DNA from: Rhodospirillaceae bacterium
GTDB taxonomy: Bacteria; Pseudomonadota; Alphaproteobacteria; CACIAM-22H2
DNA: 33,503 nucleotides
NCBI GenBank assembly: GCA_009694125.1
Contig: SHVT01000013.1
Span: 1-33,503 of the forward strand
Reading direction: 5' to 3'
The first letter of the stretch is position 1; each line of letters starts with the position of its first letter. Shown piece after piece: positions 20,779 to 30,145 of this stretch. Both the position numbers and the translations under genes were made by a program. Below the pieces are notes generated by a model. That model was given only the letters and a program-made list of their open reading frames with translations. It was not told the DNA's origin and searched no databases.

Positions 20779-23700
20779 ATGCCGGCGCGCGCGGATAGGG
20801 ACAAGTCCAAGTTAATCGACAAGATCGTGGCGCTTGCCCGTGGCAAGGTCGAGCGCGGCAAGGCCGACGAGACCGAGGCCTTCACCCGTGTCTATTACGC
20901 CAACGTCCCGCCCGACGACATTGCCGAGGCAACCCCGGAGAATCTGTGCGGCGCCGCCCTCGCCCTTTTGTCGTTCGGCCGGTCGCGGGTTAGCGGAGCC
21001 GCCAAGGTGCGCGCCTATAATCCGCGATTCGAGGAACACGGCTGGTCATCCCCCCACACGGTCATCGAAGCTGTTACCGACGACATGCCGTTCCTGGTCG
21101 ATTCGCTGACCGGCGAGTTGAACCGGATGGACCTGACCGTTCATCTTGTCGTGCACCCCGCCGTCCATGTTCGCCGCGACGCTAACGGCGCGACCGAGGA
21201 TCTCGGGTCCAAGGCGGCGAACGCGCGCGCGGAATCCTTCATCCACGCAGAAGTCGACGAACAGGCCGATCCGGACATGATCGAGACGATCCGGGCCGGG
21301 ATCGAAAGAGTGCTTTCCGATGTCAGGCTTGCCGTGACCGATTGGCGGGCGATGCGCGCCAAGGCCGCCGACATCCTGGCCAAGATCGACGGCGTGCCGT
21401 TGCCCAAGGATGAAATCGGCGCCGCCGGCACCTTTCTCGAATGGCTCGATGCCAACAATTTTACTTATCTCGGTTATCGCGACTACACGCTCGACGGCAT
21501 TGACTCCGACGCGCGTTTCAAGGTCGTGGAAGGCTCCGGCCTGGGGGTTCTGCGCGATCCGGCGGTCTCGGTCTATGACGATGCCAACGAGGCGGCGACG
21601 CTGCCACCGGAAGTCCACGATTTCCTGAAGCAACCCAAGCTGCTGCGCATCGCCAAGACCGACCGCCGTTCGACGATCCATCGGCGCAGCCTGATGGATG
21701 TCATCGCCGTGAAGTCATTCGACGCCAAAGGCGGGGTCGCCGGCGAGCGCATGATTCTCGGCTTGTTTACCTCCGCGGCCTATAGCCAGAGCCCCCGCGA
21801 CATTCCCCTCTTGCGCGAAAAGCTGGAGGCCGTGATGCGCCGTTCCGGCTTCACGCCGGGCAGCCATGACGGCAAGGCGCTGCTCCACATCCTTGAGACC
21901 TTTCCCCGCGACGAGCTCTTCCAAATCGGCGAGGACGACCTGTTCGGCGTTGCGCTCGGCATCCTTCATCTCCAGGAGCGGCAACGTACCGCCCTCTTCG
22001 TCCGCCGCGACCCCTTCGAACGGTTCCTCTCATGCCTGGTCTTCTGCCCCCGGGACCGCTACACCACCGAGCTGCGGCGCCGCTTTGAAACCATCCTCGA
22101 TGCCGCTTTCAACGGCCGGGTGACGGCATTCCAGCCGTTCCTGTCCGAGGAATCGGCCTCGCACGCATCCATTTCATACTGCGCACAAAACCCGGAGCCA
22201 TTCCCGACTACCGCATCGAGGATATCGAAGCCCGTCTGGTCGAGGCCGGCAGAAGCTGGGCCGATTCGCTGAAGGACGCCCTGGTGGCATCAAAGGGCGA
22301 ACGCGGCGGACTCGCCTTGTTCCGGCGTTATGGCGATGCCTTCTCCACGGCCTATCGCGACAGTTTCACGGTTGCGGCCGCAATCCACGACATTGACCGA
22401 GTGGAAGAGGCACGTGCGCAAGGCGGCCTCGCGATGAGCCTCTACCGCCCGGTCGAGGCGGCCGAACACGCGCTGCGTTTCAAGATATTTCACAGCCACG
22501 GCGCCGTGCACCTATCGGACATCCTGCCGATGTTGGAGCATATGGGCCTGCGCGTCGTGGAGGAAACACCCTATCCGGTGACGCCGCAAGGCGCGACCGC
22601 GCCGGTGTGGATGCACGATTTCAGTCTCTTGTCCCGGACCGGCGCCGGAATCGACATCGGTGCGGCGAAAGCCGACTTCCAGGAGGCGTTTGCCCGAATT
22701 TGGTCCGGTGAACTGGAGGACGATGGCTTCAACCGCCTGGTGCTGCTGGCCCGCATCAATTGGCGCGAAGTCACGATCCTCCGCGCCTATTGCAAATATC
22801 TGCGGCAGGCCGGCATCGCCTTCAGCCAGACCTATATGGAAGACACGCTGGCCAACAATCCGGATCTGGCGCGCCTTCTCGTCGAGATTTTCCGCGCGCG
22901 CTTCACGCCCGGCAAAGAAACGCCCCAACGCCTCGGCGCCGCCGAAATGGAAGCCGAGTTCCTGAAGAAGCTCGATGCGGTGAGCAATCTCGACGAAGAT
23001 CGTATCCTCAGGCGATTTCTCAATGTCCTGCAGGCGACGCTGCGCACGAACTTTTTTCAAACGACCGCGAACGGGCCAAAACCTTACCTGTCATTCAAGC
23101 TCGACAGCCTAGCCGTCGACGAGCTGCCTCTGCCGCGGCCGCGATACGAAATCTTCGTCTATTCGCCGCGCGTCGAGGCGATCCACCTGCGCGGCGGCAA
23201 GGTGGCGCGCGGCGGCATCCGCTGGTCCGATCGGCGCGAGGATTTTCGCACCGAAGTCCTGGGCCTGATGAAGGCCCAGATGGTGAAGAACGCGGTCATC
23301 GTTCCGCTGGGCTCCAAAGGTGGATTCGTGGTCAAACGTCCGCCGACGGAAGGCGGGCGAGACGCTCTCCAGGCCGAGGTCGTGGAGTGTTACAAGACAT
23401 TGATACGCGGGCTTCTGGACATCACCGACAACCTAAAGGGCGACAAGGTCGTGCCGACCGCCGATGTCGTTCGCCGCGACGACGACGACACCTATCTGGT
23501 CGTCGCCGCCGATAAAGGAACCGCCACATTTTCCGACATCGCCAACGGCGTTTCGCGCGAATACGGATTCTGGCTCGACGACGCCTTCGCCTCCGGCGGC
23601 TCCGCCGGTTACGATCACAAGAAAATGGGCATCACCGCACGCGGCGCGTGGGAATCGGTGAAGCGCCATTTCCGCGAACTTGGCATCGATGTGCAATCGA

Positions 23701-25610
23701 CCGCCTTCACCGTGGCCGGCGTGGGCGACATGTCCGGGGACGTCTTCGGCAACGGCATGTTGCGGTCGAACCATATCAAGCTGGTCGCCGCGTTCGACCA
23801 TCGCCACATTTTCATCGATCCCGATCCCGACCCCACCGCGAGCCTCAAGGAACGCGACCGCCTGTTCAAACTGCCGCGTTCGTCCTGGGCGGATTACGAC
23901 AAGGCCGTCCTGTCGCCCGGTGGCTCGATCATCGACCGCAAGGCGAAGTCGGTGGCCGTGACGCCGGTGGTGGCGAAGCTCCTCGACATCAAGGCCGAAA
24001 CGATAACCCCGGCGGCGCTCATGCAGGCAATCCTGCGCGCCAGAGTCGACCTCTTGTGGTTCGGCGGCATCGGGACATACGTCAAGGCCTCCACCGAGAG
24101 CGCCGCCGAAGCCGGCGATCGCGCCAATGACGCCATCCGCGTCAATGGCCGCGAGATTCGCGCCCGTGTCGTGGGCGAAGGCGCCAATCTCGGCGTGACC
24201 CAACGCGGTCGTATCGAATATGCGCGCGCAGGCGGGCGAATCAACACCGACGCGATCGACAATTCCGCAGGCGTCGATACCTCCGATCACGAAGTCAATA
24301 TCAAGATCCTCCTCGGCGAAGTCGTCGGCCGCGGCGATCTGACGCTTAAGCAGCGCAACGACTTGTTGACCTCGATGACCGATGACGTCGCCGCGTTGGT
24401 GTTGCGCGACAACTATCTACAGACACAGGCGATCAGCGTCGCCGAGGCGCAAGGCCATCGCTCGCTTGACCAGTACGCCCGCCTGATGCGCGCTCTCGAA
24501 CGCGCGGGCAAACTCAACCGGGCGATCGAATTCCTGCCCGATGACGAGGGTCTGGCCGAACGTCAGAACTCGGGAACTGGGCTGACTCGCCCGGAACTCG
24601 CGGTGTTGCTCGCTTATGGCAAGATGTCGCTCCACGACGAGCTGCTGCCCGCCGACCTCCCGGACGATGCGCTCCTGGTCGAGGACTTGCTGAGATATTT
24701 CCCCCAAGCGCTCAGGGCCAAACACCGCGACGCCGCCGAGCGGCACCGGCTGCGGCGCGAGATTATCGCCACGGTCGTCACCAATAGCATGGTCAACCGG
24801 GTTGGCCCCACCTTCGTCAACGAAATGCGCGAGCGAACCGGCCGGTCGGCGAGTGAGATCGCCCGCGCCTATGCGGTCACGCGCGATGTTTTCGAGCTTC
24901 GCAAGATTTGGACCGCCATCGAAGGCCTGGACAACAAGGTCCCGGCTAAGACCCAGACCGACATGTTGCTCGCCGTCAGCCGCCTGGTGGATCGAGCCAC
25001 GTCGTGGTTCCTGCGCAACGGCACCCATCCGATCGACATTGCCGCCTATGTCGCCGAATTCGGCCCTGGCGTCGCGGCCATCGCCCAAGCCTTGCCCAAG
25101 ATGCTGGCGGCCGAGCGGCGCGAGGCGCTCGCCCGCCGCACCGAAGCCTATGCCAGTGCCGGCGTGCCCCAGGATTTGGCGGAACGCGTGGCCGGGCTCC
25201 GCGATCTGCCCGCCAGCGGCACCATCGTCCGCCTGTCGCGCGGCGGCACGTTCGACGTCGAAACCGTGGGCCGCGTCCATTTTGGGGTCGGCGCCCGTCT
25301 GGGCATCGATTGGCTGCGCGGCGCGGCGCAGCGCCTGGACCCCGCCACGGCCTGGCAAAAACTCGCGGTCGGCGCCGTACTTGACGATCTCGTCGCGTTG
25401 CAAAGCGAGATCGCCAGAAAACTGCTCGCCGCGGTTGATGCCGCCGCTGCGGATAGAGCGAGCGCCGGCTTGGAGGCGTGGCTCGCACCCCGACGCACTG
25501 CGGTCGAACGATTCGAAGAAACGTTAAGCGAAATCAGGGCGGCGAACGCGGTCGACCTCGCCATGCTCACCGTCGCCACGCGCGAGCTGCGCGCGCTCGC
25601 GACGGTCTAA
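20779..25610 (+). CDS. gdhB: Large NAD-specific glutamate dehydrogenase, interrupted by one frameshift
   Basis: About 1,610 residues, the size of the large GdhB-type NAD-glutamate dehydrogenase that oxidises glutamate to 2-oxoglutarate and ammonium. The N-terminal regulatory part reads MPARADRDKSK onward; the catalytic core has VVPLGSKGGFVVKRP, GITARGAWESVKRHF, VAGVGDMSGDVFGNGML and VGEGANLGVTQRGRIEYA. The first frame runs to a stop at 22272, but similarity switches frames at about 22156: LSEES continues as LARIHFILRTKPGAIPDYR only after adding one base after GGC at 22155-22157. An extra C would restore a CCC run, so the break is in a homopolymer. Otherwise the gene is intact. A weak -35/-10 pair lies just before 20770. 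Confidence 0.92.
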
Positions 25611-25654: not shown

Positions 25655-27787
25655 ATGAGGAAATTGGAGTCCGCGGATATTGCCGCCTGGATCGGGCAGG
25701 GTCCGCCGCCCATGCTTCTCCTTGGTGCCGGCGCCTCGACGCCAGCCATGCCCCTGGCCAATGAGATCAAACACGAAATCCTCGTCCAAGCCATGAAGGC
25801 CGCGACATCGATTTCTTCGGGGAGCCATGATCGCAAGCGGCTGGCCGACCTTGAGCAACGACTCGCCGAGCCGCACCTTACACTGGAGCTTCTGTGCGCC
25901 GCCTTGCGATACCGCCTGCGGCTGTCCGGCGAAGACATCGCGCGCCTGCTCCGTTCGGTCCTCGGGGGAATTCAGCCGAATGCGTTTTCGCGTGCGGTCG
26001 CGGCGCTGCGCAAGGCCGAGCGACTGGGCCCAATTCTGACGGCCAATGCCGACACGCTTCTCTACCGAGCCATCGTCGAAAGCGGGGCGCAATTCAGACT
26101 TGTGACGAAGAGTTCTTGCGCGACCGCGGCGGCGGGAGATCTTGCCGTCGAAATTAAGGACATCTGCGCCTTCCGCGGCACGCTGCTCTCGCCAGCGGAC
26201 GTTGCGGACGACAGTTTTCCATCCCAAACCTATGCGCCGCCGGCCGCCGTGGACATGCATGGCATGGCGCGCCCATTCTCGCCGCAAATGACGGCGTATC
26301 TGAAGGCCGCGTTCCATGCCTATCCACGGGTCCTGGTATTCGGCTATTCGGGCAACGACCACTACGACATGAACCTGCTGCTGCGGCGCGCGGTTCGAGA
26401 CCGCCCCAACGCTCTCGACGATTGGCTGTGCCTGTCCGCCGACGGCGATCGGGGCGCGCTCGCGGACCTGTTTGTCGACAAGCACGGGAGCATCCGGAGC
26501 ACAGCCTTTGGGCAGGCTTCGGCCAAGACATTTTGCACCGCGGCGGCTTCGCTGCTTGCACTGCCGGGCGGGCGGTACGACGACACACCGGCCAACGAAT
26601 TGGAGTGGACCGAGAGGGTCTCGGAATATTTCTCGCAGAGATTATCGGCGATTCAGCACCGACTCGACCTCTCGGAGTTGATCGACGACCTCGAAAAGCG
26701 ATTGCATTATGCCTGGGTAGTCGCGGAACGGTTCCAACTCGACAATTTCGGTTATGACCCGATTGAGATCCGTGCCTTCGGCGGCCTGGATCGGGGCGAG
26801 AGCGGGCGACCGCGGGGTTACGAAAACGTGGCCTATGGCGCGTTCGTCGAAGCCCAGGAGGAATTTTGGCGATTGCGCAACATTGCCGGACCGGCCGGGC
26901 CGGCATCGATCGATGCCGTCATCACCCGGTTCACGAAGATTCAGCGCGATATCGCTTTGGCTCTCAACCGGCCGCGTCGCGATATCGACCAGGCGATGCT
27001 CCTGGTCGGGCAGGCCATCTGCCAAAATCACATCGGCCTGGCTGAGATGCAACGGTTGCGCGCCGGCGTACGAGGCGACGACGCGACGAAAATTCGGGCC
27101 AAGGCCCGCACCCGCTTCCGCCGCGCCGTGGGCCTGGCCGAGCAAGCAAAGGCGCGGGCGATCAAAGTCGACGACGTGGTTTTCACCCAGGCCAGGGACG
27201 GTGCCGAGGGGATCGTCTGGCACATCGTGCCCGCCGATCTGTGGGAGCTGGCGGCCCGCGACAATTTATGCCGGACCCTTGAGCGCGACGATGCCATCGC
27301 CGGGCTTCGAGACGTGATCCTCGCCCGCCTGAGGCTTGTCAACGAGGACGATGCGGCCTATGCGGCCGGACATTATGTTCGGCTGTGTAGGCTCGGCCTC
27401 GATCTCGTCAAATATATCTACCAAGCGCAGGGTGAAACGCAGGCGCCCGCCGATGCCGCATCGATCGAAAGCGAAAATGACGGCGGCGAATTCATACGGA
27501 TCGGCGATTGGGCCATTGATGAAGTCATGGAAAATGCCGTCGACCGATATCGATTCATCGCCGGCGACAGGCATCCCTGGCTGTTGGCCTGGTTCGATGC
27601 GCGCCTGATCCGCGAGGCCGCGCGGCGAGCGACCGGCGCGGCCGAGGCCGTGGTCAAGGAGGCACAGACCTTCTTTCCCGCCGAGGCGGTCGCGCGGCAG
27701 CCGGAACTCGCCCTGGCCATGCGCCGATTCCAGCGGCGGACAGAGGAATGCCGAAAGGCAAACCTGATCGGCGGCCTTCGGAGTTGA
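25655..27787 (+). CDS. SIR2-like domain protein with unknown C-terminal region
   Basis: A 710-residue protein not matching a named gene. Residues about 18-265 look like a SIR2-type NAD-binding fold: LLLGAGAST (21-29), ILTANADTLLYR (127-138; usual form TTNYD, Asn131 the likely catalytic Asn), MHG (201-203; His202 in the usual catalytic HG) and VLVFGYSGNDHYD (226-238). The remainder (about 330-710) is Arg/Ala-rich, predicted helical, without recognised repeats or motifs. There is no signal peptide or membrane segment. Similar SIR2-plus-large-helical-domain layouts in DSR1/DSR2 and other antiphage systems destroy NAD. That is an analogy, not a shown homology. An AGGA sits 4 bases before the ATG. 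It lies 44 bases after gdhB and is followed by a hairpin. Confidence 0.7.
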   Translation: MRKLESADIAAWIGQGPPPMLLLGAGASTPAMPLANEIKHEILVQAMKAATSISSGSHDRKRLADLEQRLAEPHLTLELLCAALRYRLRLSGEDIARLLRSVLGGIQPNAFSRAVAALRKAERLGPILTANADTLLYRAIVESGAQFRLVTKSSCATAAAGDLAVEIKDICAFRGTLLSPADVADDSFPSQTYAPPAAVDMHGMARPFSPQMTAYLKAAFHAYPRVLVFGYSGNDHYDMNLLLRRAVRDRPNALDDWLCLSADGDRGALADLFVDKHGSIRSTAFGQASAKTFCTAAASLLALPGGRYDDTPANELEWTERVSEYFSQRLSAIQHRLDLSELIDDLEKRLHYAWVVAERFQLDNFGYDPIEIRAFGGLDRGESGRPRGYENVAYGAFVEAQEEFWRLRNIAGPAGPASIDAVITRFTKIQRDIALALNRPRRDIDQAMLLVGQAICQNHIGLAEMQRLRAGVRGDDATKIRAKARTRFRRAVGLAEQAKARAIKVDDVVFTQARDGAEGIVWHIVPADLWELAARDNLCRTLERDDAIAGLRDVILARLRLVNEDDAAYAAGHYVRLCRLGLDLVKYIYQAQGETQAPADAASIESENDGGEFIRIGDWAIDEVMENAVDRYRFIAGDRHPWLLAWFDARLIREAARRATGAAEAVVKEAQTFFPAEAVARQPELALAMRRFQRRTEECRKANLIGGLRS

Positions 27788-27801: not shown

Positions 27802-27818
27802 GGGGGCGAAACGCCCCC
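27802..27818. terminator. Hairpin after the SIR2-like gene
   Basis: A perfect 7-bp GC stem (27802-27808 with 27812-27818) with an AAA loop lies 14 bases after the stop. No T-tract follows, so termination is uncertain. Confidence 0.4.
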
Positions 27819-29175: not shown

Positions 29176-29964
29176 CTAGTTTTGGCCGGCGGGCTGGTAA
29201 TTGTCGACCAAGGCCTTGACCAGATCGAGATGAAGATCGGCCCCTTCCGGATCCATCGCTTCCTTCAAATATTCGACGAATTCGGGCGACAACAACAAAT
29301 CCTTCAGATGGAAGGCCACCCATTGAGCCTCGCGCACGATCTGCGCGTCGACCAACATAAGAATCAGAACGAGCGACCCCCGCCCGAGCATGGTTCGCAC
29401 GATGTCATGGTCGCCATGCGCCTCGAACAGGTGAAACAGGTCGTTGCACAACTCGCGCACCTTATCGACGTCGCTGCGCTTGCCGTGGTCGGTGATCAGG
29501 CAGATCGACGATTGCGCGACGCTGGCCGCGACATCGGCATCGGCGGGAAATTCCCGGCTGAGCGTCAGCAAATTCTTGTAGATCGCCGCGGCGGCGGCGA
29601 TGTCGTCTTTTTCGCCGAAATCGTAGACCAACACCGCGGCCGCGGCGGCAAGGGCGCGACGCAGATACCCACCCGGTGGTGTCGCCGCGGCCATCGCCGC
29701 CATATCGGTATGGAGCGATTTCACCAAATCCAGATCGCCGCGTTTATGCGCCGCGGTTGCCGTGAGCTGCTGCATCGGCGCCATCATTTCCGCGCGCGGC
29801 ATGCGGCCATTGCCACGTTCGACAAGTTGGCCCCATTCCGCGAGTTTGGCACGGAGGCCGGCGGCATCGTCGGAATCGCGCGGCAAAAGGCGATGAATGG
29901 CCGCGTCCGGGTCATCCTTCGCCAGATATCGGATCAAACCGATGAGATCGCTATCGACTGACAT
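29176..29964 (-). CDS. Hypothetical helical protein
   Basis: I do not recognise a family. The product is about 262 residues, mostly helical (RAEMMAPMQQLTATAAHKRGDLDLVKSL, YKNLLTLSREFPADADVAASVAQSSICL), with no signal peptide or transmembrane segment. The helical repeats with DPDAA, DLDLV and VRELCNDL have a TPR-like look but do not match the consensus. The ATG at 29964 lacks a good ribosome binding site; a TTG at 29985 in the same frame is possible. It lies just upstream of the DUF2937 gene on the same strand and may be co-transcribed. Confidence 0.65.
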   Translation of the reverse strand: MSVDSDLIGLIRYLAKDDPDAAIHRLLPRDSDDAAGLRAKLAEWGQLVERGNGRMPRAEMMAPMQQLTATAAHKRGDLDLVKSLHTDMAAMAAATPPGGYLRRALAAAAAVLVYDFGEKDDIAAAAAIYKNLLTLSREFPADADVAASVAQSSICLITDHGKRSDVDKVRELCNDLFHLFEAHGDHDIVRTMLGRGSLVLILMLVDAQIVREAQWVAFHLKDLLLSPEFVEYLKEAMDPEGADLHLDLVKALVDNYQPAGQN

Positions 29965-30145
29965 AACAACATCATCGGTCGGCAAATCGCCTTTGCCAAT
30001 GCCTTTTTTGCCCGGCGGCGTTCACGGACGGGGGATATTGAAATTCGCTCCGGAGCCAACCTATTTCCACGTCGCCTATGCCGCGATCGCGCCCTTGATG
30101 TGCGTCAAGGCGGATCCGCGCGTTGGATATCTAGTTGTTGGAAGA

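What the first reader, a model, noticed from the sequence alone, without database searches (positions are those of the whole stretch)
25655..27787. Stand-alone SIR2-like protein with a large unrecognised C-terminal region, possible NAD-depleting defence effector
The N-terminus shows the SIR2 fold landmarks (GAGAS, TANAD, HG, GYSGND) with Asn131 and His202 in the catalytic places, so NAD cleavage is plausible. The remaining 380 residues resemble nothing I know. Single-gene SIR2 plus helical-domain proteins (DSR1/DSR2) and SIR2 effectors in Thoeris and other systems deplete NAD in phage infection. Against this, the gene sits among housekeeping genes right after gdhB rather than in a defence island, and no partner is visible. 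The neighbouring NAD-using gene could equally suggest a metabolic or regulatory role.
Basis: partly seen in the sequence, partly recalled or inferred. Interest (0 to 1): 0.75.

Follow-up and report, generated by a model that had tools for sequence, protein, structure and literature searches.

The report
Rare SIR2–helical protein, catalytic histidine lost
This gene encodes a rare two-part protein: an NAD-cutting enzyme domain like those bacteria use against viruses, joined to an undescribed helical part. The copy in this genome seems to have lost a key catalytic residue that its relatives keep.

Summary
The 710-aa ORF at 25655-27787 is real, and residues 16-265 are a SIR2-like domain of the defence/NADase type. 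Profile comparison gives E 7e-9 with a SPARSA SIR2-APAZ protein. Pfam SIR2_2 is sub-threshold for this copy but significant for a homologue.

"His202" (VDMHGM) is not the catalytic HG: it is Gln in a sister species and has no counterpart in other SIR2 proteins. The true HG is residues 174-175. Both sister species and a full-length 709-aa gammaproteobacterial homologue have His there; the window has Arg (CGC versus CAC). This copy is therefore probably a crippled NADase; the sister copy in G002 is intact.

The unknown C-terminal half is conserved in the distant homologue (26% identity, collinear), so this is one two-domain family, absent from NCBIfam and PADLOC. It is very rare: all three genomes of this genus at the same spot (gdh-SIR2-PCMT), no other genome of the family, and one gammaproteobacterium, where it is AT-rich and beside a probable transposase remnant.

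Best reading: a single-gene, DSR-like candidate defence NADase with its own sensor. Defence is inferred, not shown. Linkage to gdh looks incidental: one species has lost most of gdh but keeps the gene.

The parts
25655..27787 (+). 710-aa SIR2-like protein gene (N-terminal SIR2 domain plus conserved undescribed helical C-terminal region)
   Evidence: ORF; orthologues; distant full-length homologue
25700..26449 (+). SIR2-like domain, residues 16-265
   Evidence: hhalign to SPARSA SIR2-APAZ, E 7.4e-9, P 95.8; Pfam SIR2_2 sub-threshold 17.6 bits; homologue 37.5 bits, E 3e-9
25724..25738 (+). GAGAS motif, residues 24-28
   Evidence: alignment
26039..26053 (+). TANAD motif, residues 129-133, with catalytic Asn131
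   Evidence: aligned with TTNFD of SPARSA/PDC-S65 proteins and the QNID of a sirtuin
26174..26179 (+). True HG motif position, residues 174-175; Arg174-Gly in the window, His-Gly in the family's other members
   Evidence: CGC versus CAC in G001, G002, L007; LHG in G711 and in Meso/Kleb/Strep SIR2 proteins
26258..26263 (+).
   Evidence: Gln in G002, RK in G711
26342..26359 (+). GYSGND motif, residues 230-235
   Evidence: aligned with GFRGSE, GYAGWD, GWSADW of other SIR2 proteins
26627..27784 (+). C-terminal helical region, residues 325-710, conserved within the family, no library match
   Evidence: invariant columns in A3; no Pfam match at E<=10; low-confidence, mostly helical models

Best explanation
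The gene belongs to a rare, undescribed two-domain family: an N-terminal SIR2-type NAD+ hydrolase fused to a roughly 380-residue helical C-terminal region. By analogy with DSR2, the C-terminal region would act as sensor and regulatory scaffold. On binding an unknown infection cue it would switch on NAD+ cleavage in the SIR2 domain and stop phage growth by NAD depletion. Shown here: the SIR2 domain with its motifs, the conserved full-length architecture, rarity, absence of a visible partner gene, a horizontally acquired look in one host, and vertical retention in this genus. Inferred: NADase activity, sensing by the C-terminus, antiphage role. The window's allele carries H174R at the catalytic position and is probably enzymatically dead or weak.
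For: SIR2 domain aligns with a SPARSA SIR2-APAZ effector (E 7.4e-9, P 95.8), which lies beside a short pAgo gene, and with PDC-S65 SIR2 proteins (E 3e-6 to 6e-6); an unrelated control gives E 0.75. It matches a canonical sirtuin only weakly (P 30), and the Cys residues of a zinc module are absent. A full-length collinear 709-aa homologue exists in G711. Distribution is patchy: 3/3 genomes of the genus, 0/20 others of the family, one hit in phylum-wide samples. The G711 gene has 33% GC in a 44% locus, beside a Tn5-like transposase remnant (weak, E 0.03). In DSR2, mutating N133 or H171 lowers or abolishes NADase activity (PMC10981675, PMC11087589).
Against: No defence genes nearby in the window; the locus is fixed in the genus with host-like GC. 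No copies on plasmids, in phages or in viral contigs. No DSR, ThsA or Avs5 model hit. The catalytic His is Arg in this copy, and the G001 copy has a frameshift. Both structure models were low confidence (pLDDT 39-41), so fold and sensor role are not demonstrated.
Confidence: 0.5

Rival explanations
1. A decaying gene: a former defence NADase whose activity has been lost in most of the genus, by H174R in the window species and by frameshift in G001, leaving G002 as the only intact copy.
For: R174 in the window against His in all family members; +1 frameshift in a G8 run in G001.
Against: dN/dS about 0.13-0.17, close to neighbours, in all pairs. Changes at positions conserved with G711 are not in excess in the window lineage (8, 3 and 8 for window, G002, G001). 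Long open frames are retained. The lesions are single-base differences in metagenome assemblies and may be recent or errors.
Confidence: 0.25
2. A resident metabolic or regulatory SIR2-like protein of this genus, for example NAD- or ADP-ribose-linked control of glutamate catabolism together with the neighbouring NAD-glutamate dehydrogenase.
For: Fixed gdh-SIR2-PCMT order in three species; only 44 bp between gdh and the gene; host-like GC3; purifying selection.
Against: In G001 (94% complete) gdh is reduced to remnants and no other copy was found, yet the SIR2 gene persists. Relatives with gdh lack the gene. The distant homologue is not near gdh.
Confidence: 0.15
3. The R174 protein is a working variant, or a dead SIR2 scaffold that binds NAD or a trigger and signals without hydrolysing NAD.
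For: HG is not absolute: Avs5 works with NG (PMC12931631), and the Halobaculum PDC-S65 protein also reads NG; selection persists on the gene.
Against: Ala or Gln at that place abolished Avs5 defence; sister species keep His; Arg was not seen at this place in any other protein aligned here.
Confidence: 0.07

Closest known systems
DSR2 / DSR1 (defence-associated sirtuins)
   Same: Single gene, N-terminal SIR2 domain with catalytic Asn and His about 40 residues apart, long helical C-terminal region, no partner gene
   Different: 710 aa, whereas DSR2 is a longer protein (984 aligned C-alpha atoms); no PADLOC DSR hit; C-terminal region not recognisably similar; trigger unknown; the window copy lacks the His
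SPARSA SIR2-APAZ effector (with short pAgo)
   Same: Closest SIR2 domain by profile comparison; same GAG, TTNxD, HG and GxxG landmarks
   Different: No recognisable APAZ region and no Argonaute gene next to it; an extra stretch of about 20-25 residues between HG and GYSGND (including MARPFPP)
PDC-S65 (PADLOC candidate defence SIR2 protein)
   Same: Stand-alone SIR2 protein of 570-610 aa with an unknown C-terminal half; SIR2 domain alignable
   Different: Only weak similarity, confined to the SIR2 domain; C-terminal half not matched
ThsA (Thoeris) and Avs5
   Same: SIR2 NADase effector fused to a sensor
   Different: No SLOG domain, no STAND NTPase, no TIR partner found

Membership tests
SIR2_2 (PF13289) / SIR2-like domain | Sequence match to the family | tested here: inconclusive
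   Window copy 17.6 bits, below the 24.5 cut-off; homologue L029 37.5 bits, above it; hhalign to SPARSA SIR2 E 7e-9
SIR2_2 (PF13289) / SIR2-like domain | GAGxS, TxNxD and GxSxxD motifs | tested here: met
   Alignment
Active SIR2 NADase | Catalytic Asn | tested here: met
   Asn131 aligns with the TTNxD Asn
Active SIR2 NADase | Catalytic His of the HG motif (Asn tolerated in Avs5) | tested here: not met
   Arg174 in the window; His in G001, G002, L007 and G711
Active SIR2 NADase | NAD+ hydrolysis | not testable with these tools
   Needs an assay
DSR1/DSR2 | SIR2 plus helical C-terminal region in one gene without partner | tested here: inconclusive
   Single gene without a visible partner; helicity rests on low-confidence prediction only
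DSR1/DSR2 | Sequence match to DSR models | tested here: not met
   No PADLOC DSR hit for the window copy or homologues
SPARSA | APAZ region and adjacent short pAgo | tested here: not met
   No pAgo among the neighbouring genes scanned; C-terminal half has no match
Thoeris ThsA / Avs5 | SLOG or STAND domain and system partners | tested here: not met
   No such Pfam or PADLOC hit
Canonical sirtuin deacetylase | Zinc-binding Cys4 module | tested here: not met
   Only two Cys lie between Asn131 and GYSGND and neither is kept in the homologue

The most novel reading that the evidence does not exclude
A previously undescribed family of single-protein immune NADases whose conserved C-terminal domain directly senses a phage component, found so far in one freshwater alphaproteobacterial genus and one gammaproteobacterium, with one natural catalytically dead allele.
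Probability: 0.3. Interest if true: 0.55.

Novelty: new variant of a known kind. Interest (0 to 1): 0.42.

Why it matters
If right, it adds a SIR2-plus-sensor family absent from the defence library searched, with a conserved C-terminal region that could reveal a new phage trigger. The natural H174 and R174 alleles offer a ready control for testing the catalytic step. It also corrects the motif assignment: an H202A mutant, as first proposed, would not have tested catalysis.

Tried and rejected
Two AlphaFold2 runs (whole protein, and residues 325-710) gave pLDDT 39-41, so no fold search was run: matches would be meaningless. Armadillo-repeat PDB hits to residues 18-75 were rejected as chance: low per-domain scores, and the region holds the GAGAS loop. 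The hit in G606 (an open frame of 39 aa with five stops) was rejected as chance. G184 is a canonical sirtuin matched around the catalytic Asn only, useful as a motif anchor. Searches for mobile copies in plasmids, phages and viral contigs were negative. The pre-insertion (empty) site could not be located, because in relatives gdh and PCMT lie apart beside other genes. The rhodanese neighbour in G716 gave no synteny information. A consensus promoter/terminator scan found nothing above chance.

Full report
OBSERVATION. The ORF at 25655-27787 (+) encodes 710 aa. The next gene upstream is the C-terminal part of an NAD-specific glutamate dehydrogenase, 44 bp away; downstream is a PCMT-like methyltransferase. 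Pfam SIR2_2 matches residues 127-264 below its cut-off (17.6 against 24.5 bits). No match was found in PADLOC, NCBIfam or (above noise) PHROGs.

FAMILY. Orthologues exist only in the two other genomes of the genus (86-91% identity) and in a fragment from a further metagenome assembly (L007). None was found in the 20 other genomes of the family or in class, order and phylum samples except one: G711, which shares only the phylum with the window and looks gammaproteobacterial from its gene content, with a 709-aa full-length homologue. Those samples overlap, and the search's first-look filter may miss very distant relatives. The alignment is collinear from end to end at 26% identity, with conserved residues in both halves (for example N-terminal GAGA, GPILT-N-D and ARPF-P; C-terminal VP-D-W-L-A-DNL-R and YRFI). 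The C-terminal region therefore belongs to the family and is not a random fusion.

CATALYTIC MOTIFS. Profile comparison of the family with a Mesorhizobium SIR2-APAZ protein, whose gene overlaps a short pAgo gene, gives P 95.8 and E 7.4e-9 over residues 16-265. Comparisons with PDC-S65 proteins and a Klebsiella plasmid SIR2 protein agree, and an unrelated control gives E 0.75. The multiple alignment puts the HG motif at residues 174-175. G001, G002 and L007 read FHG, G711 reads LHG, and the window reads FRG, through CGC in place of CAC. In DSR2, H171A and N133A lower or abolish activity. Avs5 tolerates Asn or His but not Ala or Gln at this place. Arg was not among the residues reported there, so the window allele is predicted to be impaired. 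Whether the change is real or an assembly error cannot be decided here.

SELECTION. dN/dS is 0.13-0.17 between the three species, within or slightly above the range of neighbours (0.07-0.15). Changes at positions conserved with G711 are 8, 3 and 8 on the window, G002 and G001 lineages. That shows no clear relaxation in the window lineage, so long-standing loss of function is not supported. The G001 copy carries a one-base insertion in a G8 run around residue 410.

CONTEXT. In the genus the order gdh-SIR2-PCMT is fixed. In G001 and L007 gdh is reduced to its two ends, and no other gdh copy was found in the 94%-complete G001 genome, yet the SIR2 gene stays. This argues against a role tied to GDH. 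In other members of the family gdh and PCMT lie in different places beside other genes. In G711 the gene has 33% GC in a 44% locus and lies beside a remnant with a weak match to the Tn5 transposase dimerisation domain (E 0.03), which suggests horizontal arrival. No copies were found in plasmids, phages or viral contigs.

MECHANISM. The anatomy (SIR2 NADase domain plus a conserved, probably helical region, one gene, no visible partner, patchy distribution) is that of DSR-type effectors. I infer that the C-terminal region senses an infection cue and unleashes NAD hydrolysis. Helicity rests on low-confidence models. The defence role is an inference from architecture and distribution only.

VERDICT. 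This is a new family-level variant of SIR2-type candidate defence proteins, with a corrected active-site assignment and a probable catalytic lesion in the window's own copy.

Noticed in passing
window 22100-22290: The NAD-glutamate dehydrogenase, a single ~1600-aa frame in G002 and other relatives, is split here into ORFs 20779-22272 and 22284-25610 by a one-base deletion near 22155.
   Followed up: partly
L009 9550-10430 and L007 1697-2577: In G001 and the L007 contig the glutamate dehydrogenase gene has a very large internal deletion plus a frameshift; only its two ends remain beside the SIR2 gene.
   Followed up: partly
L009 around 11715: G8 homopolymer with a one-base insertion breaks the SIR2 frame in G001; it could be a phase-variable tract, a pseudogene lesion or an assembly error.
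   Followed up: no
window 29176-29985: 269-aa protein without any Pfam match, 94% conserved in G001.
   Followed up: no
L042 3944-5668: Halobaculum PDC-S65 SIR2 protein has NG in place of HG, like the variant reported for Avs5.
   Followed up: no
window 27802-27818: G/C-rich inverted repeat (GGGGGCGAAACGCCCCC) just after the SIR2 stop codon, partly kept in G001 and G002; no T run follows.
   Followed up: no
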